Positions 9,587 through 51,323 are shown, numbered from the stretch's first letter. The stretch is DNA of 64,000 nt from Anaerolineae bacterium (GCA_019912965.1 JAIOHM010000213.1:62001-126000), one strand, 5' to 3'. The notes: generated by a model not told the origin, from the sequence alone. Numbers and translations: made by a program.

Positions 9587-9664
9587 GAACTCGCTTTCGA
9601 CTATCCGTAATGGGAGTTCTCGACATCAGGTAGAAAATATTATAATAAATTAGCATTGGATGTA

Positions 9665-10156
9665 TTAACCTGTGTTGTTTTCGTTTTCGTCTAAATCGTT
9701 ATTTATGGTTAAATCCTTAAGTTCTATCCCTAGGGCATCGAGAATCGAAACCATTTTTTTATCATTTAGCAATATTTCGTTGTCTAGAAATTGATAGAGT
9801 TCTGATTTGTCTATACCAGTTTTTTCTGCTAATTTTGCGATGCTCATAATTCTCCCAGTTTTGACTTGATATACGCCAATAGCATGTTCGAGTTGAAATT
9901 GGATTATTGGTTTTTTACTATCGTTAATTCTTTTAGTGTCAGTTCTTATAATCAGTTTATTAACGTCCTCCATGCCTAGTATTTTGAGAATAATGTTGAT
10001 TTGCTCAAGGCTTGGGGATGATTCCCCCGATTTAAGTCGATAGAGAGCTGATTTAGAAATGCCCGTTTCTTCAGCCAATTTTTCAATAGTCATAATTCTT
10101 CCAGTTTTGACTTGATAAGCAGCAATAACACTGCTGAGATCAAATTTAGTAGGCAT
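9665..10156 (-). CDS. Tandem XRE/HTH regulator with two duplicated DNA-binding domains
   Basis: A 163-aa protein made of two copies of one HTH module. Copy 1 spans about residues 8-70 and copy 2 about 90-150. Each starts with the near-identical YQVKTGRIM segment, followed by IEKLAEETGISKSALYRLK or IAKLAEKTGIDKSELYQFL. This is an internal duplication that would let one chain read two half-sites. An inverted repeat plus a third half-site (10242-10278) lies about 90 bases upstream of the start, which suggests autoregulation. It probably also governs the TIR gene immediately downstream (79-bp gap). Confidence 0.7.
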   Translation of the reverse strand: MPTKFDLSSVIAAYQVKTGRIMTIEKLAEETGISKSALYRLKSGESSPSLEQINIILKILGMEDVNKLIIRTDTKRINDSKKPIIQFQLEHAIGVYQVKTGRIMSIAKLAEKTGIDKSELYQFLDNEILLNDKKMVSILDALGIELKDLTINNDLDENENNTG

Positions 10157-32377: not shown

Positions 32378-32605
32378 CTACACAGATTTGGTTTCATATG
32401 TTTCCATGACAGCGGAAATGTCTTCTTGACATACTTCCCAATGAGTTGCACTGCTTTCTAAATCCGCCAAATCTGTGAGCAAAAGTTCGACAGCTAACGG
32501 ATTTAGACTTGGAAGTATATCCATAATACGTGCCACATGATCGTAAATAGCTTGGATTTTATCGCTATGTGTCATCTCTGGGTATAAGGGATGGTATGTT
32601 GACAT
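32378..32605 (-). CDS. Small helical protein at the end of the HerA/methylase operon
   Basis: A 75-aa, mostly helical, acidic protein (SDKIQAIYDHVARIMDIL, then LNPLAVELLLTDLADLES). I chose the ATG at 32605 because GGAGG lies nine bases before it; the frame upstream is hydrophobic and unlikely to be translated. It is 25 bases past the HerA-type gene on the same strand, so it belongs to the same transcript. It could be an inhibitor or accessory subunit. Unknown. Confidence 0.5.
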   Translation of the reverse strand: MSTYHPLYPEMTHSDKIQAIYDHVARIMDILPSLNPLAVELLLTDLADLESSATHWEVCQEDISAVMETYETKSV

Positions 32606-32630
32606 TAGATATTCCTCCAAAGTCCAAACT

Positions 32631-34550
32631 TCACTCAGTATAATGACGATGCGAAGCAGCCGGACGAATACGAACAATAATTGGATGAGGGAATTGACTT
32701 GAAACAATCACTGCTCGCCCCCGCCCCAAAGTGGGTACATCGTCCCAAATGGCTTCATTGATCGAACCAGTCGCTCCCTTCAATACCCGCAAATTCTGAG
32801 CGCCTGTTGTTTGGTGGATTATCTTGTTATTTGCCAATTCAAAAAGTTCGGAAGGAAGATGTTCAGGCGACTGCGTGACGAAGTGCAGAGCTAACCAGCG
32901 TTTGCGGCCTCGCCGTGCGATCCGTCGAAGCTGATCTAAGGTCTGCTCCATTTTGTCCTGCTTTTCACGGGAGATGAAACCGTGTGCTTCCTCAATTGTG
33001 ATAAAAACCTTCCGCTTGTTTTGTTGATCTTCGGGGAGGTGCATCTTATAGTGATACATCCGCGCAAGTAAATCAGCGATCACAATATTTACAATCTGTT
33101 GACTGTCGGCATCAGACATATCAATGACTGTCAACTTACCGGGGGTGCTAAGGTCATCCATATTTAGCGGGCGAGCGTCTTCTCGATCAAATATGCCAAT
33201 CATTTTTAGCTCTTTCAGTTTGTTGAGGAGAGCGTTATATGACTGCACATCTTGGGGACTTTCAATCAGCGGCTTAAGATGCTTAAGATTATGTTTCTTG
33301 AAATAAGGCTCCCAAGCTTCCTCAACAGGTTCAGAGTCATCGGAACTGCCTTCAGGATTCCATGCAAATTCTGGCCTTCTTTGATCTATATGCTTGCCCT
33401 TTTTACTAGTTTCTGTCTTTTGTTTGGCAGCTTCCTTTTTTGCCGTCCTATAATATCTAAGCTCCTCAGACAAAATAGAAATCAGCAAGGGAAGTTTTAC
33501 ACCCGGATGCCCACCTCCTACATCCCAGTGATCGCTCGTGTCCTCCTCCGCGCTATTCTGTTTTTCTGACCCCAGACTATCAATTGCCTGTTGGTAAAGA
33601 AAAGTGAAACGCATCTGTTGCGTAGTATTCATCTCAGTTATTTCTGCGATAAGTTCAGGCGGTAATGAGTCAAATGGGACTGAGAAAGGAGTCGCATCCT
33701 TACGGGCGGAGGTTGCATTTGGTGGGCGGTAGACAGAGAGGTTCTTTACGCCTTCGGCCTTCCGCTTAAATGCACCAAGCTGGTCATCAATGTTGTCCTG
33801 AGAAGATTTCTTGTCCATAAGAATATATTCACCTTCAGGATCAATAACAATCTGTGCGTAGCCCGCCTGCAACGTTTCCTCGATGAAGACTTGATTGGTG
33901 TTTGACTTTCCACTGCCGATTGTTCCTACAGTAAGCCAGTTACGGGGCATTACCCCTTTGTCATTACCATTAATGCGTACAAAAACATTCTCGTAGCTAT
34001 CGAGTAAGCCCAAGAGAATGTTGCCGTGTAACTTCAACATTTCCTCCATCATCTCTGTGTTATACGGCTTTACTGGCGACGCAGGATGAGGACGACTTCT
34101 CAGACCCACAAGTGTGCCATCTATTTCTTCACCCAGAATCTCTATCTGAATCCAGCCATGATATTCTGGCAAGGTGAGCATTTTGCCCTTGCCTTGGTTC
34201 AAAATAATAAACTGCACAGGTGTAGAGTCTCGCTTCAATGCGTCCGGCGTGTAAAATGGCCCTTCAATGATTCGACCAGTATAGAAACGATCATCCTTCA
34301 GGCTGTACACGGACACATATAAGCCGCGACGGATCTGTGTTAGGTCTTCAAAATGAACTAATGCCTCAACGACATTGCTTTTGGCAGTATTTGGATCAAA
34401 GTGAATAAATGCAATAGCGCCTTGCCCTTCGGCGGCAAGCGCCTGAAACGCCTCGTCGTCTTGCATAGCTTCTAGCTCATTGATGCCGTTTTCAACATTT
34501 GCAATTTCTGGCTGGTATCCAATTTTTCGGCCATTGTCTTGTAAGCTCAT
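32631..34550 (-). CDS. HerA/FtsK-type bipolar DNA translocase
   Basis: A 639-aa ATPase of the HerA group. An N-terminal OB-like region (about 60-170) is followed by Walker A GTIGSGKSNTNQ near residue 210, a strand with IVIDPEGEY near 235, Walker B VFITIEEAHGF near 514, and the HerA arginine-type segment LRRIARRGRKRWL plus QSPEHLP. Members form hexamers that pump DNA and team up with a nuclease (NurA, Sir2, DUF4297 and others). The start ATG at 34550 has GGAGG eleven bases upstream. The preceding gene is a NurA-like protein, 14 bases away. Confidence 0.8.
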   Translation of the reverse strand: MSLQDNGRKIGYQPEIANVENGINELEAMQDDEAFQALAAEGQGAIAFIHFDPNTAKSNVVEALVHFEDLTQIRRGLYVSVYSLKDDRFYTGRIIEGPFYTPDALKRDSTPVQFIILNQGKGKMLTLPEYHGWIQIEILGEEIDGTLVGLRSRPHPASPVKPYNTEMMEEMLKLHGNILLGLLDSYENVFVRINGNDKGVMPRNWLTVGTIGSGKSNTNQVFIEETLQAGYAQIVIDPEGEYILMDKKSSQDNIDDQLGAFKRKAEGVKNLSVYRPPNATSARKDATPFSVPFDSLPPELIAEITEMNTTQQMRFTFLYQQAIDSLGSEKQNSAEEDTSDHWDVGGGHPGVKLPLLISILSEELRYYRTAKKEAAKQKTETSKKGKHIDQRRPEFAWNPEGSSDDSEPVEEAWEPYFKKHNLKHLKPLIESPQDVQSYNALLNKLKELKMIGIFDREDARPLNMDDLSTPGKLTVIDMSDADSQQIVNIVIADLLARMYHYKMHLPEDQQNKRKVFITIEEAHGFISREKQDKMEQTLDQLRRIARRGRKRWLALHFVTQSPEHLPSELFELANNKIIHQTTGAQNLRVLKGATGSINEAIWDDVPTLGRGRAVIVSSQFPHPIIVRIRPAASHRHYTE

Positions 34551-34564
34551 CTTAGGTTTACCTC

Positions 34565-35779
34565 CTAATCTCGTGTGGTACGTTCAGATTGATAGACACC
34601 GCTACCACCAGCGGCATATGAAAATTCGGCATTCATAAAATTGGTATACTCACTTGCTTTAAACGCCCCGGAACAATATTGATCCGCAAGATCAATGAGT
34701 AGGGGAAAACCTCGTGCTCCGGTGTTAGATGCGTCTGCAAGCAGAATGTGGACTGCCTCGTGTAATTGGTCTGCATTGCAGTAAAAAATATATGGCGGGC
34801 TGAGTGGATGTGCGCGTAATACCCCCTGCACCACTTTAGAGCCATACTTCTGCTGAAAGTCTTTGAACACTCTAATTTGACTGCGATTGCCATATTGTGG
34901 GATAGGGGTATTCGTATAATTCGCGTTGTCCAAAAAATCTTCTAGCAACTCGTCACCTGTCCTGACAACAATGTACTCACCCGGATTGAGCGCCAAACCT
35001 AGCATTTTTAAATCCCGGTACGCAGTGCTGTTGGAGATAATGCAGGCATAGTTACCAGTTTCAATCATCCTTGCGATGAGTTCTAAGCAGGTTTGCATCG
35101 TATTGGCTTTACCAGAGCCACTCAGCATCTCATGAGGGAATATCGGGCCTTGAATGAGTTTGAAATATTCCGGCGGGCTATCTAGCAAAACCTGTCGCTC
35201 CTTGTAGGTCATGAGGGCATAGAGAAATAAGTTTGGTAATTTCTGTGGTAGCGATTTACCTCGTGATTTAATTGCTCTTACAATATCCCGAACATCGGGA
35301 TTGTTTGGTAACTCTTTTCCCCAATAAACGAGGTCTGAAACAATCTGTCCGGTACTGCCACGATAGCCAACTTTTGAGACAGCAATTTGTGCGCCGACTA
35401 AACTTAGTGACTCATATTTGGCGAGTGTTCCGTCAGCAGCGACGACTTTCCCCGTAAATAGCCGCTTTTGTTTAAGAAGCTCAATGTATCTTTGGTCAGC
35501 GCATTTCCAATCGAGAAGTGTGCCGTCTTGAACCAACTCAGGGAAGTATATTTCCCGTAGCTCATGACGGAGTTGTTGATCGGATGCAACTACCCGGCCA
35601 ATGATATTTCGGGTCTTGGTTGGCATTGTCTGATAGTAGTGTCCGGGGTCATGCCAGTGCGATGAGTCTACTATCACGTCGAAATCTACCGTTTGGGCAA
35701 ATGCCTCATCTACTTCAGGCATATCATCCGGGATTTCCGAATAAGCAGTATTATCACCGTTGATAGTGTTGCTAAACAT
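34565..35779 (-). CDS. NurA-like nuclease
   Basis: A 404-aa protein. It has the NurA type of layout: VVAADGTLAKYESLSLVGAQ near residue 112 (an acidic residue in a strand-turn, then hydrophobic strand), a long helical middle, and a C-terminal ARGFPLLIDLADQY segment near 360. Partner nucleases of HerA work as 5'-3' exonucleases with a metal-binding acidic core. The assignment is by layout and by its location directly before HerA; the overall similarity is weak, so another HerA partner nuclease is possible. AAGGAA sits eight bases before its ATG. Confidence 0.55.
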   Translation of the reverse strand: MFSNTINGDNTAYSEIPDDMPEVDEAFAQTVDFDVIVDSSHWHDPGHYYQTMPTKTRNIIGRVVASDQQLRHELREIYFPELVQDGTLLDWKCADQRYIELLKQKRLFTGKVVAADGTLAKYESLSLVGAQIAVSKVGYRGSTGQIVSDLVYWGKELPNNPDVRDIVRAIKSRGKSLPQKLPNLFLYALMTYKERQVLLDSPPEYFKLIQGPIFPHEMLSGSGKANTMQTCLELIARMIETGNYACIISNSTAYRDLKMLGLALNPGEYIVVRTGDELLEDFLDNANYTNTPIPQYGNRSQIRVFKDFQQKYGSKVVQGVLRAHPLSPPYIFYCNADQLHEAVHILLADASNTGARGFPLLIDLADQYCSGAFKASEYTNFMNAEFSYAAGGSGVYQSERTTRD

Positions 35780-35887
35780 TGCTGTTCCTTTAGCGACGCA
35801 AAACCTTAACTAACTGGATAGAAGCTGAAGCGACTATGTGATTTGCTGTTCTATCTAGTTATACGACGCTGCGATGCAGTTTTCGCA

Positions 35888-36685
35888 CTAGGATTGGTTA
35901 TCGTCGAAAAATTTACGATTTTTACGTTCAATTAGTGGGGAAAACATGCGGTCAACCAAATCAGGGCGGGGAGACATATAGCGCTTCAAGTCGTCGTAAT
36001 AGTCAGCGGCGACTTTAAGGGGTAGTCCAAATGAAGACTTTATTGTTTGTGCAAATTCGGTTCGTGTTTTATGCCGATAGTGGGACTTGGTAAGCTCCCA
36101 AGGAGCAATCAACTCTCGAGCTATCAAGTCTGCTAGTATTTCACGATCTGATGTATCTTCATGTATATGCTCACCTCTGCCTGTGATTTCGGACGGACGA
36201 TCTGGAAGTCCCTTTAAAAAAGCACGTAATTCTAATCGAGGATTAAATTCCTGCCATTGAAAAGCTTTCGTTATCTCTGTTTGCTGTTCAGGCATAAATT
36301 TGTGCCAGAGTTGTTGTACTGAGAAAACATCTGCTAAAAAATGTCCTACCTCATGTGCGATAACATAGTTGACAATATGCTGCGGTAAACCTGCGCGAAC
36401 TAAAATAATGTTTGAAGGTGGCCCAATATGGAGCAATCCCAAGATTAATCGTTCAGAATTTCCTCCTCGCTCTGCAAAAATGCTACCACTTAGCGCACAA
36501 ATATAACTTCGAGCCTGCTGTATAGAGAGGTTGCGTTGGTAGACAATTGGGATTTCTAGCCCATGAGAAACCAGCATCTCAAGGTCACGGGGAAAATTGT
36601 CTGTAGCAAGACCTCTTGAATTGAGAATTAAAGTGAAACTCTCAGCTATGGAAATTGCATTCGACACAGACGAATTCTTAAGCAC
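35888..36685 (-). CDS. ImmA/IrrE-type metallopeptidase
   Basis: A 265-aa protein with a zinc-peptidase signature, VIAHEVGHFLADVF, near residue 110, and a second acidic segment DREILADLIARELIAP near 180 that would supply the third ligand. Family members cleave phage-type or XRE repressors in response to a signal. GTG start at 36685, only five bases after the stop of the HTH-like protein upstream. The pair looks like a repressor/antirepressor switch for this operon. Confidence 0.75.
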   Translation of the reverse strand: MLKNSSVSNAISIAESFTLILNSRGLATDNFPRDLEMLVSHGLEIPIVYQRNLSIQQARSYICALSGSIFAERGGNSERLILGLLHIGPPSNIILVRAGLPQHIVNYVIAHEVGHFLADVFSVQQLWHKFMPEQQTEITKAFQWQEFNPRLELRAFLKGLPDRPSEITGRGEHIHEDTSDREILADLIARELIAPWELTKSHYRHKTRTEFAQTIKSSFGLPLKVAADYYDDLKRYMSPRPDLVDRMFSPLIERKNRKFFDDNQS

Positions 36686-36690
36686 TAGCG

Positions 36691-37089
36691 TTATTCTTCC
36701 GGTAACTCATCCAAATCATCACGTTCATCGAATGCCGCTTCATAAAACTGATCCAATGTGGCCGTTTGATGGCCGTGTGACATAAGGTTGCGAGCAAGCA
36801 GCATAGAGCTTACAAAACGTTGAGGGTGTTCCAATTTGCAAAATACTGCTATGCGGTATGCATCCTCGACAAACATGTGTTTGCGCGGCAAGCGCATTGC
36901 TTTGAGGCGCAAAAACTCATCTGCTGATACACCAAAAACCTCTTGCTGTTGTTGTTCGGTTGTATTTTCGTGGGAGCGAAGGACAGCTAAATAGCTGTTT
37001 ATTGAGCCGGGTAACTCCGAGGCTTGGTGATACCAACGCATTAGTATATTTGCGTTGTCGTATTGATCTTGTGGCTTAATCATATTCAC
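36691..37089 (-). CDS. HTH-like protein partnering the metallopeptidase
   Basis: A 132-aa protein. Residues about 40-95 have a helix-turn-helix-like pattern (QQQQEVFGVSADEFLRLKAM, then LPRKHMFVEDAYRIAVFCKL), reminiscent of degenerate XRE domains. The tail is acidic (DERDDLDELPEE). Its position directly before an ImmA/IrrE-type peptidase fits the usual pairing of a repressor with its protease. No catalytic motif is seen. Confidence 0.5.
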   Translation of the reverse strand: MNMIKPQDQYDNANILMRWYHQASELPGSINSYLAVLRSHENTTEQQQQEVFGVSADEFLRLKAMRLPRKHMFVEDAYRIAVFCKLEHPQRFVSSMLLARNLMSHGHQTATLDQFYEAAFDERDDLDELPEE

Positions 37090-37096
37090 GAGCCGC

Positions 37097-37720
37097 CTAA
37101 AATAAATCAGTTAGAACAACATTCAATTCATCTGCTATGGTTCGGATTTTTCGATACAAGCGCTCTTTGGTATTTTTGACTTCCTTAGTAAGGTCGTTCA
37201 CATCTGTTCTGTGGTTCAAAAGTATAGTGACAAACCGTTCACTGTCTTTAACACCGGATCGCATTAGTCCCAAGAACTCAATCTCTAATGGCTCTAAATA
37301 TTGTTCGACCTGCTCGAAGAAACGCTGAACTGAAATATTTTGCTCTTCCTCATCTGTATAGTTATACGGAGTTGCAAGTGACTTTTCGTATTTAATGTCA
37401 GCATCAAGTGAGATAAGTTTCTTGTTTTCAGCCGCTTGCTGTAGTAAGTCTCTGACTCGTAATTTAAATAAATTCAGAATGTAGGTGGTGAGTTTAGAAC
37501 GCTTGCGGTCATATCTGTCGTGGTTGATGCAGACTTCACCAAAAACCTGATGCATTAGACTCTCAACTTCATCGGCTGCTAAACCAGCGTAATTGCTTTT
37601 CGCCCACCGGATTAAAGGGGGCAATAGGAGTTCTATGCTTTCTTGGATAGCGATAGGATCACCATTTACAAACCCATCTAGTTGTGCTGAAGTGGGCTGT
37701 GGAAACTTGCTCTCATCCAT
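37097..37720 (-). CDS. Sigma70-family-like regulator
   Basis: A 207-aa protein with a region-2-like part (about 15-90): ESIELLLPPLIRW, then ADEVESLMHQVFGEVC, RSKLTTYILNLFKLRVRDLLQ. A C-terminal part (about 145-205) has LIEI-type helices, LEPLEIEFLGLMRSG and then a basic segment KERLYRKIRTIADEL. This resembles a small ECF-like sigma factor with a region-4 substitute. It is the second gene of the operon, 19 bases after the methyltransferase, so it may direct transcription of the operon itself. Confidence 0.55.
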   Translation of the reverse strand: MDESKFPQPTSAQLDGFVNGDPIAIQESIELLLPPLIRWAKSNYAGLAADEVESLMHQVFGEVCINHDRYDRKRSKLTTYILNLFKLRVRDLLQQAAENKKLISLDADIKYEKSLATPYNYTDEEEQNISVQRFFEQVEQYLEPLEIEFLGLMRSGVKDSERFVTILLNHRTDVNDLTKEVKNTKERLYRKIRTIADELNVVLTDLF

Positions 37721-37739
37721 TCACATTCACCTTGAACCG

Positions 37740-39128
37740 CTAGTTATATTTGGTGAATACCAGAATGTATTCTTCTGGATAAACCTCGCTCGTACTTGAG
37801 ACTGTGGATGAGAAACGCCCTGTCTGTTTATCGCGTTTGCTAACAAGCACTCGTCCGGGCACTTTGCGTGGAATCTTTACATCTAGTTCAAAACCTACGC
37901 CTTCGGCTAACTCCTGCAAAGCTTTGGAAGTTTCAATGTCAATCCCTCGTTTATAGGAGTCTCCTATAACTAAAACCAGCTTTTTACCCGGTCTGATTAT
38001 TCGTTCAAATTCACGCAAAACTTTAGCCATGTCATGAAAATAGTACCGTAATGCATTTGCCTCATTCTTTGCATCTTTTATCCCATCTGCCCCAATAAGA
38101 GCGAGTCTCGCCAGAGCGCTATCGGCTGTTTCAGACCCAGTTTTGGAAACAGCATATTGCTCCAAAGTGCTACGCATAGCAATTTCATCTGAGCCAATCC
38201 AAGCAAGTTGCGATTCAGTTTGCGGGATTAATTGGTAACTCTCAAACCAAATTTGGGTGAGTTGATGTAAATCACTATAGTCATAGCAAGTTGCATAGGG
38301 AGGGCTAGTAACAACGAGATCAAATTGACAATAGTCTAATTTTGGCTGGCGAGCATCTTGCCATTCTATTGAGAAATTTTCTGTTACTGCACTAGGATTT
38401 ATACCTGAAGCTAGTAGATCATTCCAATAAAGCACATTTCGGATGACCATGTTGCGAACTTGTTTTGAAAATTCCTCAACAGGATCATTTAAGCTACAAT
38501 TGAGGTCTTTTTGCGGTTTGGTACTACCACTCAGCCAAATAGAGCAACGTCGCAAAATATTCGAAAAAGCGCACAAGAAAAACTCGCGGAATATAAGGTC
38601 TTCGACTTGTAATATTTGCTCAATGATTGCCGAAAGTGCGGTTCGATGGGGAAGAGGGAACCAGTAATCCATCCGCTCAAGATAAGATGCCTTTCGTAAA
38701 TCAAACGCGAGAATGAAATCCTTTTCTTCTGAGGTAAGTCGTCGTCGTCCAACTCGATCAATCCTCGCAACTCTTTTCAACAGTTTATTACTCGTCACCT
38801 CTAAGGATGTTGGATTTATGGGGGTGCATTTGACGCGGCTTAAGAAAAGTGCAACGTGATTGATGTCTGAACCATAAAATGTCCGTCCGGTACGCAAGGC
38901 TTCCACGCCAGTTGTTCCAGAACCTACAAATAAATCGCCCACATGGTCGCCGGGATCAGAGTAACGTTCAATAATTCTTCGTACCAATTGAGGAATGAAT
39001 TTCGCAGGATAGCGGTGGTAGCCATGAGTACCCCATAGGGTCTCGGACCGTTTTAGATGGGCAAATGACCAATCTAATTCAAGAACTGACTGAATACTTT
39101 CGAGTCCTAGCTGTGTCTTTGTTATCAA
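37740..39128 (-). CDS. DNA methyltransferase (N4-cytosine/N6-adenine type)
   Basis: A 462-aa methyltransferase. Motif I, VGDLFVGSGTTGVEAL, is near residue 52 and the catalytic motif IV, DLVVTSPPYATCYDY, near 275. A region of about 200 residues between them (target recognition) puts the order as I, recognition region, IV. The first segment contains the HRYPAKFIPQLV signature found in standalone methylases of defence loci. Start is TTG at 39128. It is the first gene of a seven-gene minus-strand operon. It probably marks self DNA for the HerA/NurA module. Confidence 0.75.
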   Translation of the reverse strand: MITKTQLGLESIQSVLELDWSFAHLKRSETLWGTHGYHRYPAKFIPQLVRRIIERYSDPGDHVGDLFVGSGTTGVEALRTGRTFYGSDINHVALFLSRVKCTPINPTSLEVTSNKLLKRVARIDRVGRRRLTSEEKDFILAFDLRKASYLERMDYWFPLPHRTALSAIIEQILQVEDLIFREFFLCAFSNILRRCSIWLSGSTKPQKDLNCSLNDPVEEFSKQVRNMVIRNVLYWNDLLASGINPSAVTENFSIEWQDARQPKLDYCQFDLVVTSPPYATCYDYSDLHQLTQIWFESYQLIPQTESQLAWIGSDEIAMRSTLEQYAVSKTGSETADSALARLALIGADGIKDAKNEANALRYYFHDMAKVLREFERIIRPGKKLVLVIGDSYKRGIDIETSKALQELAEGVGFELDVKIPRKVPGRVLVSKRDKQTGRFSSTVSSTSEVYPEEYILVFTKYN

Positions 39129-39356: not shown

Positions 39357-39974
39357 ATGCAAAGTCAACAAACTATTGCCTACTTACGAGTATCTACCAC
39401 CGACCAAGACGTTGAGAAAAACAAGTTTGATATTCTCAAACTGGCAAATGATAAAGGTCTGGGGCAGGTGAAGTGGGTCGAGGAGAAAATCTCGACCCGT
39501 GTCTCATGGCACAAACGCCAAATTGCTCGCGTTCTAGAAGACCTTCAATCCGGCGATCATCTTATTGTGAGCGAGTTATCTCGTTTGGGACGCTCGATGT
39601 TGGAGTGCATGGAAATCTTGTCGATTGCGTTTCAAAAAGGCATTCATCTGTATGCAGTCAAAGGGAATTGGCGACTAGACAACTCGATCCAGTCCAAGAT
39701 CGTAGCGATGGCTTTCTCAATGGCGGCTGAGATTGAACGTGATCTGATTAGCCAGCGAACCAAAGAAGCCCTCGCGGCACGGAAAAAAGCAGGGAAACGA
39801 CTTGGAAGACCGAGAGGGATTGGCAAGAGTAAACTGGATGCCTACCGTCCAGAGATCGAAGCGTTACTGGCGAATGGTTCCAAACAATCCTTCATCGCCA
39901 AACGCTACGGCACAACAGCCCCCAATCTCAGTCGATGGCTCAAAAGACATAGCCTAAAATCTGCCACCACCTAA
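39357..39974 (+). CDS. Serine resolvase/invertase
   Basis: A 205-aa small serine recombinase: YLRVSTTDQ with catalytic serine near residue 13, SELSRLGRSMLECMEIL, then the E-helix and RTKEALAARKKAGKRLGRPRG. The C-terminal HTH (about 155-200) has YRPEIEALLANGSKQSFIAKRYG. It carries out local inversion or cointegrate resolution. It lies just upstream of qatA, with a 142-bp gap. A diverged copy of its C-terminal HTH lies after qatD (44884-45021), so the Qat operon is bracketed by resolvase sequences. Confidence 0.85.
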   Translation: MQSQQTIAYLRVSTTDQDVEKNKFDILKLANDKGLGQVKWVEEKISTRVSWHKRQIARVLEDLQSGDHLIVSELSRLGRSMLECMEILSIAFQKGIHLYAVKGNWRLDNSIQSKIVAMAFSMAAEIERDLISQRTKEALAARKKAGKRLGRPRGIGKSKLDAYRPEIEALLANGSKQSFIAKRYGTTAPNLSRWLKRHSLKSATT

Positions 39975-40116: not shown

Positions 40117-41976
40117 ATGTGGTCTGACAACGACACTGATGTTGATCTGCTTGGTTTTCAAGTACACAGTGACCTAATCCGAAGCGTAGTGACCAAAAAG
40201 ACGATGCTTCCAGTGACGGTAGGCTTGTTTGGCGATTGGGGAAGCGGTAAATCTAGTGTTATGCGTATGCTTCGGCGCGACCTCGAAAAGCAGGACGGCG
40301 TTGCCTGTATTTCATTCAATGGTTGGCAATTCGAGGGCTATGACGATGCCAAGACCGCGCTGATTCAGTCCATTTTGGAGGAACTGAAGAACCATCAGCG
40401 TATTGGGCCAAAAATTAAGGACAAGGCAGAAGGTTTACTGAAGCGCGTCAATTGGTTTCGCTTGGTGAGTGTTGGGTATCAGACGTTTTTAGCTCCGGTG
40501 ATTACATCCTATTTGTTAGCGCAGTCAGGTGGCACTCAGGCAGCAGCGCCGACACCCGAAACTAAACCGTTTGCGGAGCTAAACCTAGACGACGTAATCG
40601 AGAAGAATCCTGCAAATAGCGCCGTTGAGAATGTACGGGCATTTCACAAGGAGTTTTCCGAACTTATCACAGAAACCGGACTCAACGCACTCGTAATATT
40701 GATTGATGATCTTGATCGTTGCACACCCGAACGGCTCATAGATACGCTGGAAGCAATTAAGTTGTTTCTGGCAGTTCCCCATGTTGGTTTCATTATTGGG
40801 GCAGACCCGCGTCTTGTACGGTATGCTATTGCCACGCGGTATGACGCGCCACAGGGAGATGATGAACTTAATAGTGTGAAAAAGACAGAGTTAGTTACGG
40901 ATTACGTAGAAAAACTCATCCAAATTCCGTACTACCTACCGAGACTAGCACCCAATGAAATTGAAACGTACATCAATATGCTATTTTGCCAACTTAGTCT
41001 GGTTGAAAGTGACTTTGGAATAGTGCTGACCGCGTGCGGTGAGTCTCTAAAGCAAAAACGGACAGCGATTTTTGGGTATCAGGAAATTGTTAATTCGTTG
41101 ACAGCGCAGCAGAAGACGCCAGCAGCCGACCTCGAAACACAAATTTCGCTTTCCCGAACGATCTCACCATCATTAGCAGATATTCTCAAAGGTAATCCCC
41201 GGCAAACCAAGCGACTGCTTAATTCTTTACTGTTACGGCTGGAATTGGCGAAAGTAGCAGGGCTAACGATTAATCCGAGTGTATTAGTTAAGTTGATGGT
41301 ATTGGAGTATGTACGCCCTGACCAATTCAGGGAATTATACGACATACAGGCGCGTCAACACGGCACACCGTCTGAACTCGGAATTATGGAGGCTGAGGCA
41401 GTTTCAGCAGAAAAAGTCTCAGACGACAAGTTTCCGAACACCGATTGGCAAGATCGTACCGTCCTAAATTGGCTACGAATGCAACCCCCACTAGCGAAGG
41501 AAGACCTCCGTGATTACTTCTGGTTAACGCGGGATCGAATTAGTGGACTTTTAGCAGGCGTATCCCTTGTATCTCCAATCATTCGCACTTTGATAGCTGA
41601 TTTAGTAGGTAGAGAAGGAATCGCAATAAAGGCGTTTACAGATCAGGTTCGGGGATTACAAGGTGAAGAGCAAAGTATCCTGTTTTCGGAACTTGGCAAT
41701 GTGTTGAGGCGTGATCCGAACGCTGGACATTTGCTCGGAAATTGGATGGAACTATCAAATGGTTTTCCAGAGGCAGCGACACGATTAGTTTCATCACTAG
41801 ATCAAATACCAGTCGCTAGTATTCCCACTATCACGCCCCTTAAACTCGCACTCGTTCATAAAAATGTGCCGGATACTCGTGAAGCAATCACCAAGCTCTT
41901 TGCTAAGTGGAAAACAAATACTCGATTGAAGCCACGAGTTGAGGAGGCAGAAAATGACATTAGGGGGAGCAAATAA
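40117..41976 (+). CDS. qatA: QatA: KAP-family P-loop ATPase of the Qat defence system
   Basis: A 619-aa KAP NTPase. Walker A GDWGSGKSS is at residues 39-47, and Walker B LVILIDDLDRC near 193. The KAP signature includes FNGWQFEGYDD near 68. The helical insert near 125 (VSVGYQTFLAPVITSYL) is amphipathic and may touch a membrane. It is the first gene of a tight four-gene operon whose order (KAP ATPase, unknown, QueC-like, TatD-like) is that of QatABCD, a characterised anti-phage system. GGGG eight bases before the ATG. Its stop overlaps the qatB start by one base. Confidence 0.85.
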   Translation: MWSDNDTDVDLLGFQVHSDLIRSVVTKKTMLPVTVGLFGDWGSGKSSVMRMLRRDLEKQDGVACISFNGWQFEGYDDAKTALIQSILEELKNHQRIGPKIKDKAEGLLKRVNWFRLVSVGYQTFLAPVITSYLLAQSGGTQAAAPTPETKPFAELNLDDVIEKNPANSAVENVRAFHKEFSELITETGLNALVILIDDLDRCTPERLIDTLEAIKLFLAVPHVGFIIGADPRLVRYAIATRYDAPQGDDELNSVKKTELVTDYVEKLIQIPYYLPRLAPNEIETYINMLFCQLSLVESDFGIVLTACGESLKQKRTAIFGYQEIVNSLTAQQKTPAADLETQISLSRTISPSLADILKGNPRQTKRLLNSLLLRLELAKVAGLTINPSVLVKLMVLEYVRPDQFRELYDIQARQHGTPSELGIMEAEAVSAEKVSDDKFPNTDWQDRTVLNWLRMQPPLAKEDLRDYFWLTRDRISGLLAGVSLVSPIIRTLIADLVGREGIAIKAFTDQVRGLQGEEQSILFSELGNVLRRDPNAGHLLGNWMELSNGFPEAATRLVSSLDQIPVASIPTITPLKLALVHKNVPDTREAITKLFAKWKTNTRLKPRVEEAENDIRGSK

Positions 41977-42689
41977 TGGGAACATCGGCAGGGTATTCGC
42001 TCCCTACAAGCGGTAATTGGTCAAAGCTAAAAAGGGAGGTTACATCATGGGTATCAAGCGGAGCAACTGATCGTGCCAGCGTTGGGCGTGTGGTAAGCGG
42101 TTATGTGGGCGCACATGGCGGTGCTAGACAGGCTGCACAACAAATGTCACACGCGGCACGAGCCGGGTCACGCTTGGCGGGTTTTGTTGGGTCTGTTGCA
42201 CAGAATGGGCTTGCGGATACCCTAAGGCGCCTAAATCTAGGCGAGTACGTTGGACGAAGCGCTACAGAAGTTTTGCGGGGTCTCCGTAACTATCTGTTGG
42301 GTGACGGAAGTCTCATAGAGGACGATATAGTTCAAAACGCATATATGGATTTCTACGAAGAGCAACTTGACGGAAATGAGACGTTTGAAGGCTTAGAAAC
42401 ACTACTTAGGCAAACTGATGTTGGTGCGATGTTGGTGCGCTTTTTTGGTCACTGCATCTACCGTCAGTTCTTATTGCAGTTTCACGAACGCATGATGCGG
42501 AAAGTTGATATTCCAACCACTCAACGCCTATTGGGGCTAGTGAAGGACTATATTTTTACAAAACTCCGCCTCGTGACACACGGAAAGGATTTATCCGCCG
42601 TTGATTGGAACGGCGGGGACGGTGAAGCCCTATCAGGTCAAATCCTTCAAAGTGCATGGGAGTTCACGGAGGCTAACAATGCAGATTAG
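41976..42689 (+). CDS. qatB: QatB: unknown subunit of the Qat defence system
   Basis: A 237-aa protein with no motif of known activity. The first 80 residues are Gly/Ala/Ser-rich and contain VSGYVGAHGGARQAAQQMSH. The rest is helical (DTLRRLNLGEYVGRSATEVL, YRQFLLQFHERMM). Its identity rests on operon position between the KAP ATPase and the QueC-like gene, and on a matching length. Its start shares one base with the qatA stop, and its stop lies inside the qatC start region. Confidence 0.75.
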   Translation: MGTSAGYSLPTSGNWSKLKREVTSWVSSGATDRASVGRVVSGYVGAHGGARQAAQQMSHAARAGSRLAGFVGSVAQNGLADTLRRLNLGEYVGRSATEVLRGLRNYLLGDGSLIEDDIVQNAYMDFYEEQLDGNETFEGLETLLRQTDVGAMLVRFFGHCIYRQFLLQFHERMMRKVDIPTTQRLLGLVKDYIFTKLRLVTHGKDLSAVDWNGGDGEALSGQILQSAWEFTEANNAD

Positions 42690-44040
42690 TGTTGAGCTTG
42701 ATCCCAACAGGCGAAAAGCACTGTGGAATGGGTTTGTTGCATGTGATATTTGTGTTGCTGAACTTAATATCCGTGAACACCTTTTCATGCCGTATGAGCA
42801 GTTTCATCGCTATTGTGGAGCGCGAGAGTCATTAGTTGAAGATTTCTTATTTGTATCATCTGTGTGCTTTGGAGTTGATTTACTTGTGGGCAGGGAAAGC
42901 GCAGCGGACAATTGGACGCGAGAGCTATCAGTTGAAATCCCCGTCCGCGATGTAGACCTGTGGAATAACCAAGCCACGCTATTAGGCGAGATTTTACGGT
43001 TTCTCACTGGCGACAGATGGACTCTCAGTTTCAACAAACGGGTTGTTCCCTTGTATATTAAACGAATCAATAGAAGAAGAGTACGCCGATATGCTGCCGA
43101 CACCGTTTGCTTGTTCTCAGGCGGCCTTGATTCGTTTCTTGGTGCGCTTGATTGCCTCAGTACCTCTACCGGACATGTTGCGTTGGTAGGACATTATGAT
43201 GCAGGATTGGCCCGTACTTCTCAGTTGGAGCTATTTCAAGAGATACGAAATACTTTCGGACGATGGCGCACACATCTGTTTCAAGCGCGTATAGGATTTC
43301 AACCAGTAGAGCGAACGGAAGCGGTAGATTTCGGCGAAAGTACTCAACGTAGCCGCTCACTTGTTTTCATCGCTCTAGGTGTCTACATTGCCCATCAGCA
43401 GGGCAAGGATAGAAATGTACCTGTACTGATCCCGGAAAACGGTTTTATCGCTCTAAACCCACCGTTAACATACTCAAGGCTAGGTTCATGCAGCACCAGA
43501 ACAGTACATCCGTATTTCTTAGAGAAACTCCAGCTTTTTATAAATAACGTGGGAATCAACACACAACTGAGCAATCCATTTGCGGGTCAGTCAAAAGGAG
43601 AGATGCTAAATTCATCTCCCCAAAGTGAACTTGCAAAATCCCTTGCTCACTTATCCGTATCTTGCGCTCACCCTACCCGCCGACAGAATTGGATCAGGCG
43701 CGCCGCAAAACATTGCGGTTATTGCGTACCCTGCCTCGTTCGGCGGGCATCAATGCACGCGGCGGGCATTGACGACGGTTTACAGTACGGAATAGATGTT
43801 ATGGCGGGTGAACTGGACATCTATGAAGAGGTGGGGGCAGACTTCCGCGCTATTCTAAACCTCCTCTCTAACTGGAACTCGGATTCTCAATATGTCCGAA
43901 AACTCGTGAATCGAATGTCCATACCTGACGGACAATATGAGCAGGCGACCACGGTTATAGGCAAACAACTAGAGGAGTTTCATGAGCTAGTCAATAGCAA
44001 GGCAACTCGTGAAATCAGACAATGGGCAGGATTGACATGA
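42679..44040 (+). CDS. qatC: QatC: QueC-like PP-loop protein of the Qat defence system
   Basis: A 453-aa protein. The pyrophosphatase-loop motif FSGGLDSFLGALD is near residue 147, and a zinc knuckle CGYCVPC near 345 is followed by a RRA-type basic segment, as in QueC, which makes 7-cyano-7-deazaguanine. The N-terminal 140 residues are an extra domain absent from housekeeping QueC. I chose the ATG at 42679 because the frame upstream lies inside qatB. No other queuosine genes are present, so a role in Qat nucleic-acid or base modification is likely. Confidence 0.85.
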   Translation: MQISVELDPNRRKALWNGFVACDICVAELNIREHLFMPYEQFHRYCGARESLVEDFLFVSSVCFGVDLLVGRESAADNWTRELSVEIPVRDVDLWNNQATLLGEILRFLTGDRWTLSFNKRVVPLYIKRINRRRVRRYAADTVCLFSGGLDSFLGALDCLSTSTGHVALVGHYDAGLARTSQLELFQEIRNTFGRWRTHLFQARIGFQPVERTEAVDFGESTQRSRSLVFIALGVYIAHQQGKDRNVPVLIPENGFIALNPPLTYSRLGSCSTRTVHPYFLEKLQLFINNVGINTQLSNPFAGQSKGEMLNSSPQSELAKSLAHLSVSCAHPTRRQNWIRRAAKHCGYCVPCLVRRASMHAAGIDDGLQYGIDVMAGELDIYEEVGADFRAILNLLSNWNSDSQYVRKLVNRMSIPDGQYEQATTVIGKQLEEFHELVNSKATREIRQWAGLT

Positions 44041-44789
44041 AGTTACACGATACCCATTGCCATATTGATCTCTATGAAGACCCGCTTGTTATCGCGCGTC
44101 AGGTCGAACGTGAACGCATTTTTACGATTGCAGTCACTAATTTACCTACCGCTTACGCAGAAGCATTACCGCATGTAAAATCATTTCGGCAAGTACATCT
44201 GGCATTAGGCTTGCATCCATTGCTTGCTCAACATCATACGCAAAAGCAAAAGAGTCTTTTTCGCCAGTATTTGAGTGAGACATCTTATATAGGTGAAATA
44301 GGATTGGATTTCTCGCGTGAAGGTATTGATACAAAGGAAACGCAAGTAGCCTCATTCAGATTTGTGCTGGAACTTCTTTCAAAACACAAGAAAATAGTGA
44401 CACTACATTCACGGCGGGCTGAGAAAGAAGTCTTGACCTTGCTTGGTGAGTACACCGTTAGCCCGGTAATTTTTCATTGGTATAGCGGTTCTGCGTCTTT
44501 GATTGAGAAAATTGTCGAAGCTGGACACTATTTATCGGTAAATCCCTCAATGATTTCTGGTCAGTCAGGACAAACCATTATTCGACGCATTCCACAGGAT
44601 CGCGTTTTACTCGAAACAGATGGCCCATTCGTCAAGCTCAAAAATAGACAGGTGACGCCTTTAGATACACCCGCAATTTGTGAGCATCTTTCCCTAGTAT
44701 GGAACATGACAATCGCTGATGTTGAGAAAAACCTCCAAGAAAATCTTGAGCGCCTTTTGAGATGGTCAAATGATAACCTTACTAAATGA
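44037..44789 (+). CDS. qatD: QatD: TatD-like DNase of the Qat defence system
   Basis: A 250-aa TatD-family metal-dependent DNase. Visible ligands: DTHCHIDL near residue 4, GEIGLDFS near 88, VTLHSRR near 122, FHWYSG near 146, and ETDGPFV near 195. The start overlaps the qatC stop by four bases. In Qat defence, TatD-type nuclease is required; this one keeps the full ligand set. It is the last gene of the operon and is followed, 95 bases later, by the resolvase remnant. Confidence 0.85.
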   Translation: MKLHDTHCHIDLYEDPLVIARQVERERIFTIAVTNLPTAYAEALPHVKSFRQVHLALGLHPLLAQHHTQKQKSLFRQYLSETSYIGEIGLDFSREGIDTKETQVASFRFVLELLSKHKKIVTLHSRRAEKEVLTLLGEYTVSPVIFHWYSGSASLIEKIVEAGHYLSVNPSMISGQSGQTIIRRIPQDRVLLETDGPFVKLKNRQVTPLDTPAICEHLSLVWNMTIADVEKNLQENLERLLRWSNDNLTK

Positions 44790-44883: not shown

Positions 44884-45021
44884 GCGAGCAAGTTGGACAC
44901 CTACCGTCCAGAGATCGAAGCCCTGCTTGCCAATAGCTCAAAGCAGTTCTTCATTGCCAAGCGCTCCGGGACAACTGAGCCAAATCTCAGTCGATGGATA
45001 AAAATTCATAGATTGAAATAA
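44884..45021 (+). pseudogene. C-terminal remnant of a second resolvase
   Basis: About 45 codons, preceded by an in-frame stop. KLDTYRPEIEALLANSSKQF, then FIAKRSGTTEPNLSRWIK repeats the C-terminal HTH of the resolvase at 39357 (39820-39960) at clearly lower than 100% nucleotide identity. The catalytic domain is absent. The two resolvase sequences flank the Qat operon in the same orientation, suggesting a hotspot or an earlier recombination event. Confidence 0.75.
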
Positions 45022-45147
45022 GTCACATAAATAACATAGTTTTGATCTATAGCATTTGGAAACTGTGTCAAATCTAGGAAACAAGGCAACAGATGAGAGT
45101 CCGTAATTTAAATATGGAAACGCATACAACACCGTCAACTGAGAAAA

Positions 45148-48426: not shown

Positions 48427-50850
48427 TTATGTATCATATGCACATCGAAATCCAATGTTGAACTGACTTTCTGCGGGATTGCCATAGTAGCGTGTGGCTC
48501 CTTTAGCTCCAGGTAGATTGTCAAAAGCCCATGATCCGCCTCTTAGACACCTGCTCCCATTAATATTGCTATGTTCCGTTTTATTGAGATCAAAAGGATA
48601 AGGTAAATATAGGGAAGATAACCATTCCCACGTATTTCCCGCCAAGTCTGCTATTTGCCAATCATTAATACCCTTTGGATACATTCCAACTGGGCTGGTT
48701 CGAAATAAATATTCACCATGAAATAGGTTTGCTGCATCTTCTCTGAAATCATCTCCCCATGGATAAATTTGCTTACGGTGTTTGATTTTGCTGTATGTTG
48801 CTAAATATTCCCATTCCGCCTCGTTTAGCAAACGTCCTCTTTTCCACCGGGCATAAGCATTTGCTTCATACCATGAGACACCAATTACTGGACAATTGGG
48901 TGAGTCAAAACGTGGATTATGCCAGAAAGCAGGTTGACTTCGACCAGTAAGATATACCCACTCCCAACCTTCAGGTGTCCAAAGTTCCCTTTGCTTATAT
49001 CCATTGTCATTAATGAATTTATTAAAATCGTAATTTGTCACTAAGTATTTATCAACATAAAAATCATTAATTGATACAAGGCAGGATATATATTCATCGC
49101 CTAAGTAAAACTGATCAAGTCCAGTCACATAGATTTTAGAGTCATTGTCTAGCCGCACATCGCCCAGTATTCCCAGCCAATAACCTGCAGTAAATCGAAT
49201 TCGAACAGATCTCTCTGGATCAATGAGAAGCGTCTGTAAGCGTTCTTTTGTTTGGGGCAAAATGCCTACATCAACTGGTTTTTCCAACAGGGTTAACAAA
49301 TCAGCGACAAGAAAAGTATTAATATTGAGCAATTCATTAAAGAGTTCTGCCGGAGCCCTTGCAATCCCGATAAGCATTCTGAGAGAGTTAAAATGCTCTA
49401 CCCTTGGCAGAATTGGGAGTGGAGCATCCCATGGAATCTCTTCAGTTTGCGGATCTGTAAAAATGGGAGATCGCAAAAAGCTACTTTCTCGAACTTGAGC
49501 GCTATTAATTTTCATTGTGGATATCCAAGATGAGTAGGTTGGTTTGTCAAATTCATTGATTTGAAGGGCACTAAGATATGATTGAAGCATGTTATGGGAA
49601 AAACTATACTTTGTTTTTGATCCCTCAATAGATTTATTCAGAATCCCAGCGCGCCAAGCGATTTCTAGAGACTTTGACTCAGCCTCGGTTGTTGGAAATA
49701 GTTTATCTTTTGAGCCCCAAGTTGAATTAAATGCTAGGGTCGACAAATCACGTATAATTTGGTCGATCCCATTATTAAATTCGTGCGAAGATAAAATCTC
49801 GCGCTCAAGCATTGTACGGGTGAATTTGGCAGATAGTTCCGCCAAATTATCTAAGGCAATTGGCGAATCGGAATATGAATAGAGTAGCATAAGGAGGGTG
49901 TAAGGAATTTTGGCTGCCCAAAGCAGCTCATTTGGCTTTTCGCCTTCGAAAAGCAACTGATGAAGTTCAGTGGCTCGAGCTTCTGTATAGTGCCAAGTAC
50001 GACAGTATCGTCTCATTAGCTCAAGGGCTCGTTCTGGATTTAATGGTTGAACGACAGCATTAAAAATTCCCATGTTTGATTGTAGTGAATGTAACTGTGT
50101 TGCAAATAAAAATTTATTTCCCGAATTAGAAGCAGCAAGATTGTATAATTCGGTAACAAGATGTGATCGATCCTTCGCAGGGACTCGATCCAGGTTGTCA
50201 ACGAGTAACACTGCCTGTTTTCGTTTGAGATATACCTCGAAATCGAGTCCAACTGAAGAACCAATCCACCTAGCATTGATAAAACTAGATATGTCACTGT
50301 TTTTTTCAAAATCACTTGCATCAATAAAAATCGGTAGTCGAGGCGAGTTGTGTCCTAGTCCTGTGTAAGTTGGAGCAGTTCCATGTAAAGAACTTAAAGT
50401 ACTGCGGGCTACATCAAGAGCTAGTTTCGATAATAATGTGCTTTTTCCGGATCCTGTTTCTCCTGTGAGCAACCATTGAGATCCAATCAAAAACAATTGC
50501 TCTACAGACTCCAAAATGCTAGGTGGTGAACTACTAGCTTTGGGAGAGGATTTGAGAAAACGGAACTCTGGAGGTATAGCGGATGATGCAGGATCCGACA
50601 CACTTTGATGGGTATCAATTGAGAGACTTAATGGTACAAAAAGACTATCCAATTCTGAAAACTCGCTGATAAGATGAGTCAAATACGAAATTTCAAGTTC
50701 ACGAATGGGTACCCTTCCCTCAATATAATAGAAATTATTATAATATTTATTAATATCCCTTCCCGCGACGTCCCGTATTGATCCCGAGAAAATATTTCGT
50801 TCACCAAAGCTAATTGAGGAGTTGGATTTTTTGCCAAATAGAGGATTCAT
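48427..50850 (-). CDS. NACHT-type STAND ATPase fused to an FGE-sulfatase domain
   Basis: An 807-aa protein (ATG at 50850; the frame extends ten codons further to a TTG). Residues 10-42 hold a short motif: ISFGERNIFSGSI, then RDVAGRDINKYYN. The NACHT ATPase follows (about 115-330): LLTGETGSGKSTLLSKLA, IFIDASD, and VLLVDNLDRVP. After a helical stretch (330-600), the last 200 residues are an FGE-sulfatase (C-lectin-like) domain: FYVDKYLVTNYDFNKFI, PVIGVSWYEANAYARW, LLNEAEWEYLA, WGDD, LAGNTWEWLSS, RCLRGGSW, NIGFRCA. NACHT proteins act as ligand-triggered immune switches. The gene 33 bases upstream (50884) encodes a membrane protein with two copies of the same N-terminal motif. Confidence 0.8.
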   Translation of the reverse strand: MNPLFGKKSNSSISFGERNIFSGSIRDVAGRDINKYYNNFYYIEGRVPIRELEISYLTHLISEFSELDSLFVPLSLSIDTHQSVSDPASSAIPPEFRFLKSSPKASSSPPSILESVEQLFLIGSQWLLTGETGSGKSTLLSKLALDVARSTLSSLHGTAPTYTGLGHNSPRLPIFIDASDFEKNSDISSFINARWIGSSVGLDFEVYLKRKQAVLLVDNLDRVPAKDRSHLVTELYNLAASNSGNKFLFATQLHSLQSNMGIFNAVVQPLNPERALELMRRYCRTWHYTEARATELHQLLFEGEKPNELLWAAKIPYTLLMLLYSYSDSPIALDNLAELSAKFTRTMLEREILSSHEFNNGIDQIIRDLSTLAFNSTWGSKDKLFPTTEAESKSLEIAWRAGILNKSIEGSKTKYSFSHNMLQSYLSALQINEFDKPTYSSWISTMKINSAQVRESSFLRSPIFTDPQTEEIPWDAPLPILPRVEHFNSLRMLIGIARAPAELFNELLNINTFLVADLLTLLEKPVDVGILPQTKERLQTLLIDPERSVRIRFTAGYWLGILGDVRLDNDSKIYVTGLDQFYLGDEYISCLVSINDFYVDKYLVTNYDFNKFINDNGYKQRELWTPEGWEWVYLTGRSQPAFWHNPRFDSPNCPVIGVSWYEANAYARWKRGRLLNEAEWEYLATYSKIKHRKQIYPWGDDFREDAANLFHGEYLFRTSPVGMYPKGINDWQIADLAGNTWEWLSSLYLPYPFDLNKTEHSNINGSRCLRGGSWAFDNLPGAKGATRYYGNPAESQFNIGFRCAYDT

Positions 50851-50883
50851 AACGTCACATCCCGCACGATTCAAAATCAATTA

Positions 50884-51264
50884 TTAGCGTCGGTTCCACT
50901 TATTAATGTTGCGACCAACAATATTACGGATCTTTCCTTTAAATACATTCCCATCACCCATATAAACCCCTGGTGTTTTCGCTGTATCTTTTTCATTCTG
51001 TGGTTGATTTTCTCGATCTATATTAATATCCTGGCCAGCGATGTCTTTAACATCGCTCTCATAACTATTGTATTGCCCTAAATCCACCCCTACAGTTTTG
51101 CTAGAATCTTCTTGTTGCTGTTTATTCTCAGTTTCAATATCAAGACTCATGCCTGGTAAACGCAATTTATGTCTGATAACCTGATTCTTGATTATTGCGA
51201 AGAGAGAAATGACAATAAGCAGCACAACAACTATCGTTAGTGCTAATACAGTTAGCTCTGACAT
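50884..51264 (-). CDS. Small membrane protein with two copies of the NACHT-partner motif
   Basis: A 126-aa protein (ATG at 51264 with AGAGG seven bases upstream). Residues about 6-25 are one membrane helix (VLALTIVVVLLIVISLFAII). The rest is polar and carries two related 27-residue units, about 40 apart: residues 56-82 (KTVGVDLGQYNS, then DIAGQDINI) and 96-122 (KTPGVYMGDGN, then NIVGRNINK). The NACHT protein downstream carries a third copy. This two-plus-one layout matches NLR-associated amyloid signalling, in which an NLR templates a membrane-active effector. No enzyme motif is present. The genes are 33 bases apart or less on one strand, so they are co-transcribed. Confidence 0.65.
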   Translation of the reverse strand: MSELTVLALTIVVVLLIVISLFAIIKNQVIRHKLRLPGMSLDIETENKQQQEDSSKTVGVDLGQYNSYESDVKDIAGQDINIDRENQPQNEKDTAKTPGVYMGDGNVFKGKIRNIVGRNINKWNRR

Positions 51265-51323
51265 AATCCAACCTCTCAAATCCTTAACAGATGCAAAATG
51301 ATTTTGATGCCAAATCTACTACA

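What the first reader, a model, noticed from the sequence alone, without database searches (positions are those of the whole stretch)
32378..39128. Seven-gene operon: methyltransferase, sigma-like, HTH-like, ImmA/IrrE peptidase, NurA-like, HerA-type, 75-aa protein
All genes are on one strand, closely spaced (gaps of 5-108 bases). A methyltransferase with SPPY, a HerA translocase and a NurA-like nuclease are the parts of a modification-dependent restriction machine. The sigma-like factor, HTH protein and M78-type protease look like a built-in switch that could release the nuclease on infection. HerA/nuclease defence systems are known, but I know of none with this set.
Basis: partly seen in the sequence, partly recalled or inferred. 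Interest (0 to 1): 0.8.

Follow-up and report, generated by a model that had tools for sequence, protein, structure and literature searches.

The report
Protease-and-sigma-switched HerA–nuclease defence operon
A bacterium carries a compact set of six genes, kept in the same order in about twenty other genomes and prophage-like elements, that looks like an antiviral DNA-destroying machine (a DNA pump plus a nuclease, with a DNA-marking enzyme) wired to its own protease and gene-expression switch; I found no earlier description of this combination.

Summary
The operon is real at the stated coordinates and is a conserved unit. The core is sigma – XRE-like HTH protein – M78 peptidase – NurA-like – HerA. 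In 400 genomes of the window's phylum, full-length HTH and peptidase relatives occur in the same 20 genomes, and the NurA-like protein in 19 of those. The set is sporadic (about 5% of genomes), coexists with separate canonical NurA genes, and lies beside QatABCD, type I/III CRISPR or PsyrTA, or in viral-catalogue contigs. An SPPY methyltransferase is linked in 15 of 22 loci, on either side, and has been exchanged between lineages. No library names the set. The NurA assignment is supported (five NurA entries in the top 12 fold matches, colinear motifs) but not proven. The 75-aa gene is not conserved. Best reading: a restriction-like defence system with methyltransferase self-marking and a HerA–NurA-like effector, controlled by a CapP/CapH-type protease–HTH pair and a dedicated ECF-like sigma factor. 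Defence is well supported by context; the switch is inferred. No sigma-specific promoter motif was found.

The parts
37740..39128 (-). SPPY-type DNA methyltransferase (N6_N4_Mtase), exchangeable modification gene
   Evidence: PF01555 4e-20, PADLOC MTase_II 6e-50; conserved GSGT and invariant TSPPY motifs; linked in 15 of 22 loci
37097..37720 (-). ECF-like sigma factor
   Evidence: TIGR02937 4e-6, best member 8e-11; Sigma70_r2 in 12/16 members; region 4 seen only by eye in alignment A3
36691..37089 (-). HTH protein with conserved C-terminal A-A-x-D motif and acidic tail; candidate repressor/anti-sigma and protease substrate
   Evidence: conserved between sigma and peptidase genes in every locus that has both; HTH_31 in 6/16 members, best 3e-5; fold matches are XRE HTHs incl. 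CapH, ImmR, C-proteins, Z about 4; A118, A119, D121 invariant
35888..36685 (-). M78 (ImmA/IrrE/CapP-type) metallopeptidase
   Evidence: Peptidase_M78 in 16/16 members; profile matches CapP 7t5t 1e-4 and IrrE 3dte 6e-4; A110 H111 E112 H115 and E182 invariant
34565..35779 (-). NurA-like nuclease (predicted)
   Evidence: no Pfam match; NurA structures rank 1, 6, 7, 9 and 12 for a low-confidence model; colinear DGT and GFPLLIDLAD motifs vs NurA profile; invariant D116, E194, E268, D349, D363
32631..34550 (-). HerA/FtsK-type DNA-translocating ATPase
   Evidence: DUF87 3e-15, PADLOC HerA 7e-24; invariant G209 T210 G212 G214 K215, E520 E521, R547 R549
32378..32605 (-). 75-aa ORF downstream of HerA; probably not part of the conserved system
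   Evidence: no family match and no relative in any locus

Best explanation
This is a mobile anti-invader (restriction-like) system. The methyltransferase marks host DNA. HerA forms a DNA-pumping ring that feeds unmarked or invading DNA into a NurA-like nuclease, which degrades it. A three-gene control cassette keeps the effector off: the XRE-like HTH protein represses the operon and/or holds the sigma factor, the M78 peptidase destroys it when infection or DNA damage is sensed (ssDNA, by analogy with CapP), and the freed ECF-like sigma factor directs transcription of the operon. Shown here: gene content, catalytic motifs, strict conservation of order, co-occurrence, defence-island and mobile-element context, exchange of the methyltransferase. 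Inferred: nuclease activity, self-marking, the protease substrate, the trigger and the sigma target.
For: Order sigma-HTH-peptidase-NurA-like-HerA in all loci long enough to show it. Same 20 of 400 genomes for full-length HTH and peptidase, 19 of these with the NurA-like gene (chance about 1e-31 ignoring shared ancestry). Sporadic, 16 of 225 genera. Separate canonical NurA in the host and in 9 of 10 other carriers examined. Neighbours: QatABCD, type I CRISPR, Cmr, PsyrTA, TnsB, and two IMG/VR contigs. MTase linked on different sides in different lineages. L032 has a core 50-65% identical (NurA-like and HerA) to one lineage but an MTase 54-57% identical to the other. M78 + XRE-HTH resembles CapP/CapH (PMC13373217). 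HerA-nuclease pairs are proven antiphage effectors, as cited in PMC12977600.
Against: No phage test exists. NurA homology is below sequence significance (hhalign E 0.07) and the model has pLDDT 42. At least two complete loci (L027, L036) lack a nearby MTase. No promoter motif shared by the operons was found. Sigma region 4 was not detected by Pfam. The role of the HTH protein as anti-sigma is a guess.
Confidence: 0.6

Rival explanations
1. Same defence effector, but the sigma factor is not released by proteolysis: the HTH protein is a plain repressor cleaved by the peptidase (CapH/CapP logic), and the sigma factor simply amplifies its own operon or controls other host genes.
For: CapH/CapP works without a sigma factor (PMC13373217); HTH fold matches are DNA-binding XRE domains.
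Against: A sigma gene is present in every locus that has HTH and peptidase and overlaps or abuts the HTH gene, which suggests a three-part switch.
Confidence: 0.25
2. Abortive-infection system: the switch turns on a nuclease that also destroys host DNA, and the methyltransferase is a separate or optional partner.
For: Two complete loci have no nearby MTase (L027, L036); elaborate control suggests a toxic effector; the MTase gene is swapped while the core is constant.
Against: MTase linked in 15 of 22 loci and also, as a C5 enzyme, in the Bacteroidetes variant L020.
Confidence: 0.25
3. DNA-repair or end-resection operon (housekeeping HerA-NurA).
For: HerA/NurA resemblance.
Against: Present in about 5% of genomes; host has its own NurA at G000:C79; HerA far below the equivalog cut-off, 72 vs 970 bits; found in defence islands and viral-catalogue contigs.
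Confidence: 0.05
4. Remnant or cargo of a conjugative or transposable element whose HerA-like ATPase moves the element's own DNA.
For: TnsB next to the module in L021, recombinase genes beside it in the window and L039, weak VirB4 matches.
Against: No transfer genes were recognised around it, and the six genes recur with unrelated mobility genes.
Confidence: 0.05

Closest known systems
SIR2-HerA and HerA-DUF4297 antiphage systems
   Same: HerA-type ATPase encoded directly beside a nuclease/effector, in defence islands
   Different: Effector is NurA-like, not SIR2 or DUF4297; has an MTase, a sigma factor and a protease-HTH pair
Archaeal/bacterial HerA-NurA
   Same: HerA plus (predicted) NurA-fold nuclease, adjacent genes, DG[ST] and G[YF]P..L..A motifs in the same order
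   Different: Not matched by PF09376 or the HerA equivalog cut-offs; sporadic; has a regulatory cassette; host keeps a separate NurA
CapH/CapP (and ImmR/ImmA, DdrO/IrrE) protease-repressor switches
   Same: Adjacent XRE-like HTH protein and M78 metallopeptidase beside an immune or mobile-element operon
   Different: HTH protein has a conserved C-terminal AARD motif and acidic tail and is always with a sigma factor; the peptidase forms its own family
Type III-E CRISPR (Craspase-Csx30-RpoE-like sigma; from my own knowledge)
   Same: A protease and an ECF-like sigma factor within an immune operon; NF041236 weakly matches the sigma (0.011 in the window, 4e-4 in the best member)
   Different: No CRISPR parts; M78 metallopeptidase instead of a caspase-like protease
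MADS (methylation-associated defence system)
   Same: Methyltransferase plus HerA-like ATPase; PADLOC mad8 matches HERA at 2e-16
   Different: No PADLOC MADS model is matched by the sigma, HTH, peptidase or NurA-like proteins
HerA/FtsK capture systems and BREX-related capture (PMC10853773, PMC12839542)
   Same: HerA translocase with a nuclease and DNA-binding regulators
   Different: No Orc/CDC6, D5, PglZ or BrxC parts; term searches of those two papers found no set with an M78 peptidase, and sigma terms only for an HTH domain in DndH and BrxL

Membership tests
Housekeeping HerA-NurA | HerA equivalog score | tested here: not met
   NF040819 71.6 bits against a cut-off of 970
Housekeeping HerA-NurA | NurA domain (PF09376) | tested here: not met
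   no member of 18 matches PF09376; the genome's PF09376 matches are elsewhere, C79 and C130
NurA fold superfamily | NurA/RNase H-like fold with catalytic D in a DGS motif and C-terminal GYPxxLxxA motif | tested here: inconclusive
   five NurA entries among the top 12 fold matches, Z 3.0-3.8, model pLDDT 42; hhalign best local match is the GYP motif, E 0.07; controls mostly weaker, but SIG scored similarly in one run
HerA/FtsK ATPase | DUF87/HerA domain with Walker A, Walker B E, Arg finger | tested here: met
M78 peptidase (ImmA/IrrE/CapP) | HExxH plus distal acidic ligand | tested here: met
ECF sigma factor | sigma-70 region 2 | tested here: met
   Sigma70_r2 in 12 of 16 members at E <= 0.1, best 1.7e-5; TIGR02937 8e-11 best, window 4e-6, below the curated cut-off
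ECF sigma factor | sigma-70 region 4 HTH | tested here: inconclusive
   C-terminal HTH-like pattern by eye; no Pfam match
CapH/CapP switch | XRE-fold HTH repressor next to M78 peptidase | tested here: inconclusive
   adjacency met; HTH fold only Z about 4
CapH/CapP switch | ssDNA-triggered cleavage of the repressor | not testable with these tools
   needs biochemistry
SIR2-HerA / HerA-DUF4297 | SIR2 or DUF4297 effector | tested here: not met
   no such match for any of the seven proteins
MADS | further MADS proteins besides the mad8 ATPase | tested here: inconclusive
   no mad model for sigma, HTH, peptidase or NurA-like proteins; the MTase list was cut at 25 of 69 families, and I did not check that PADLOC models all eight mad genes
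BREX / DISARM | PglZ, BrxC, DrmA/B/C | tested here: not met
   no matches listed among the seven proteins
Type I/II/III restriction-modification | recognised restriction subunit partnered with the MTase | tested here: not met
   only the MTase matches

The most novel reading that the evidence does not exclude
A non-CRISPR immune system in which infection-triggered proteolysis of an HTH anti-sigma protein (perhaps through its conserved AARD tail region) releases a dedicated sigma factor that switches on a HerA-NurA-like DNA-degrading effector, with an interchangeable methyltransferase defining self.
Probability: 0.35. Interest if true: 0.85.

Novelty: new variant of a known kind. Interest (0 to 1): 0.68.

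Why it matters
Each part has known cousins (HerA–nuclease effectors, CapP/CapH switches, defence methyltransferases), but this fixed six-gene combination was not found in the libraries or papers searched. If right, it adds a defence system with its own sigma factor, a form of control otherwise known to me only for type III-E CRISPR. It also poses a testable question: how a constant translocase–nuclease core can work with different methyltransferases, and in some loci apparently with none.

Tried and rejected
Single-protein scans of genome contigs with the NurA-like and HerA proteins found none and one locus. The peptidase alignment against viral contigs found nothing; plasmid and phage collections gave no matches. 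A search for a shared ECF-type promoter motif upstream of sigma and MTase genes gave nothing above shuffles, nor did sigma-70 and terminator scans. A trans-acting MTase in genomes lacking a linked one: only distant, ordinary MTases found. An invertible promoter next to the recombinase at 39357: no inverted repeats there. A first hhalign run was forced global by a wrong option and discarded. The MADS paper is not held. Considered and rejected: housekeeping repair, conjugation remnant.

Full report
What is there. The seven ORFs are present as described. Six belong together: MTase, sigma-like, HTH, M78 peptidase, NurA-like and HerA-like. The seventh (75 aa) has no relative in any locus. Direct family matches are: PF01555 for the MTase, TIGR02937 for the sigma-like protein, DUF87/HerA for the ATPase, weak M78/CapP for the peptidase, nothing usable for the HTH and NurA-like proteins.

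Conservation. A search with the NurA-like protein found it in 19 of 400 genomes of the window's phylum, in 16 of 225 genera. Mapping all six families on the flanking DNA shows the order sigma–HTH–peptidase–NurA-like–HerA, all on one strand, wherever the contig is long enough. Sigma, HTH and peptidase genes abut or overlap in most loci. Profile searches over the same 400 genomes with the peptidase and the HTH protein return full-length relatives in the same 20 genomes (the G217 peptidase is split over two contigs), with a wide score gap to anything else. 19 of these carry the NurA-like gene. The twentieth, G025, is cut by a contig end right after the peptidase. In G073 and G217 the two halves of the module lie on different contigs. 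The chance of such overlap is about 1e-31 (this ignores shared ancestry).

Beyond the phylum. Two viral-catalogue contigs (L039 and L042) carry the same five genes in the same order, followed by the MTase on the opposite strand 13-16 bases away. By my own reading their neighbours are alphaproteobacterial and prophage-like (large serine recombinase in one; endolysin and holin in the other). A Bacteroidetes contig (L020) has a variant: a small XRE protein, a C5 methyltransferase, NurA-like, HerA, a GHKL ATPase, a receiver-domain protein and an endonuclease III-like protein (the last by eye).

The methyltransferase is linked but exchangeable. It is present in 15 of 22 loci with the regulatory trio. 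In L027 and L036 it is clearly absent; five others are cut by contig ends. It lies upstream, co-directional or divergent, or downstream and convergent. In L032 the core is 50-57% (NurA-like) and 54-65% (HerA) identical to the L029/L030/L033 lineage, yet its MTase is 54-57% identical to the window/L021 type and only 24-26% to that of its core relatives. So the MTase has moved between lineages. If it sets self versus non-self, either the effector takes its specificity from the MTase, or it is not sequence-specific by itself.

Defence context. The window has a complete QatABCD system next door. Other loci sit beside type I CRISPR genes (L030, L032, L035, L036), Cmr1 (L027), PsyrTA (L029) and an MzaA-like gene with a helicase (L033). 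L021 has a Tn7-like TnsB just upstream. The host genome has a canonical NurA elsewhere (G000:C79), as do nine of ten other carriers in the sample examined, so this is not the repair pair.

The peptidase. All 16 members match Peptidase_M78; the profile's best solved structures are CapP (7t5t) and IrrE (3dte, 8slm). HExxH and a distal E are invariant.

The HTH protein. Conserved residues cluster in an HTH-like centre and in a C-terminal A-A-(R)-D motif followed by an acidic tail. Six of 16 members match HTH_31, best 3e-5. A model of the L039 member (HTH region pLDDT about 90) matches XRE domains: 434 repressor, CapH, ImmR and restriction-controller C proteins, at Z about 4, which is weak by itself. 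CapH and ImmR are partners of M78 peptidases; PMC13373217 summarises that CapP is activated by ssDNA and cleaves the repressor CapH, controlling an adjacent immune operon.

The sigma protein. Region 2 is recognised in 12 of 16 members and TIGR02937 in 7, best 8e-11. Region 4 is visible only by eye. One member also matches the type III-E CRISPR sigma model at 4e-4. I looked for a shared promoter motif upstream of sigma and MTase genes and found none above shuffles.

The NurA-like protein. No Pfam model fits. A four-sequence AlphaFold model is poor (pLDDT 42), so its matches need caution. Still, NurA from Sulfolobus (2ygk), three further NurA crystal entries (3tai, 3taz, 3tal) and the Deinococcus HerA–NurA complex (7f6d) rank 1, 6, 7, 9 and 12 (Z 3.0-3.8). 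Profile comparison with 25 PF09376 NurA proteins gives its best local match at the C-terminal GYPxxLxxA motif (E 0.07). A relaxed alignment places the NurA DGS motif on the invariant D of this family's ACDGT. Control families were lower, but the sigma family scored similarly. In T. kodakarensis NurA, Asp49 is essential for catalysis (PMC12977600); I assume, without having checked, that it is the D of the DGS motif. I judge a NurA-type nuclease likely (about 0.75) but unproven.

Mechanism. I propose: the MTase marks self; HerA pumps unmarked or invading DNA into the NurA-like nuclease; the HTH protein keeps the operon and perhaps the sigma factor off; the M78 peptidase removes it on infection; the sigma factor then drives expression. 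Only the parts list, conservation and context are shown. Cleavage, trigger, sigma target and DNA degradation are inferred.

Known systems. HerA–nuclease pairs, CapP/CapH switches and defence MTases are known separately. No PADLOC model or paper found here describes this set. MADS shares an MTase and a HerA-like ATPase (mad8 2e-16), but no other MADS model was matched by the sigma, HTH, peptidase or NurA-like proteins. The literature library lacks most subscription journals, including the MADS paper, so novelty is provisional.

Noticed in passing
window 40117-44789: Complete QatABCD antiphage system next to the operon, divergently transcribed (QatA 5e-105, QatB 9e-28, QatC 2e-97, QatD 6e-66).
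   Followed up: yes
window 39827-39967 and 44886-45026: The 3' end of the serine recombinase gene (39357-39974) recurs at 76% identity just after QatD, so Qat is flanked by a recombinase and a recombinase remnant; possible mobility of the Qat cassette.
   Followed up: partly
window 9185-10156: Small TIR-domain gene beside an HTH gene; matches TIR parts of short-Argonaute and other TIR systems (5e-17).
   Followed up: partly
window 48427-51279: STAND-like P-loop protein with a C-terminal FGE-sulfatase-like domain (by eye) and a neighbouring 131-aa protein sharing a 'GR(D/N)IN' motif; looks like an NTP-dependent conflict pair. No PADLOC match.
   Followed up: no
L020:7420-15564: Bacteroidetes variant: XRE protein, C5 methyltransferase, NurA-like, HerA, GHKL ATPase with HEF_HK match, receiver-domain protein, endonuclease III-like protein. 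The regulatory part is swapped for a two-component-like set.
   Followed up: partly
L021:11699-15083: TnsB (1e-52) and two further genes, possibly TnsC/TniQ, lie directly upstream of the module: it may be cargo of a Tn7-like transposon.
   Followed up: partly
L042:1-9662: The module lies a few kb from endolysin- and holin-like genes (by eye) in a 51.7-kb IMG/VR contig, so a temperate phage may carry it.
   Followed up: no
G321 contigs C1 and C2, G340:C8 (L076): Large-genome relatives carry partial copies of the HTH protein (nine matches in G321) and a truncated peptidase: decayed or expanded remnants of the cassette.
   Followed up: no
L043:7161-9073: Viral-catalogue contig with broken reading frames for the NurA-like and HerA genes, HerA 44% identical to the window's in the best segment.
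   Followed up: no
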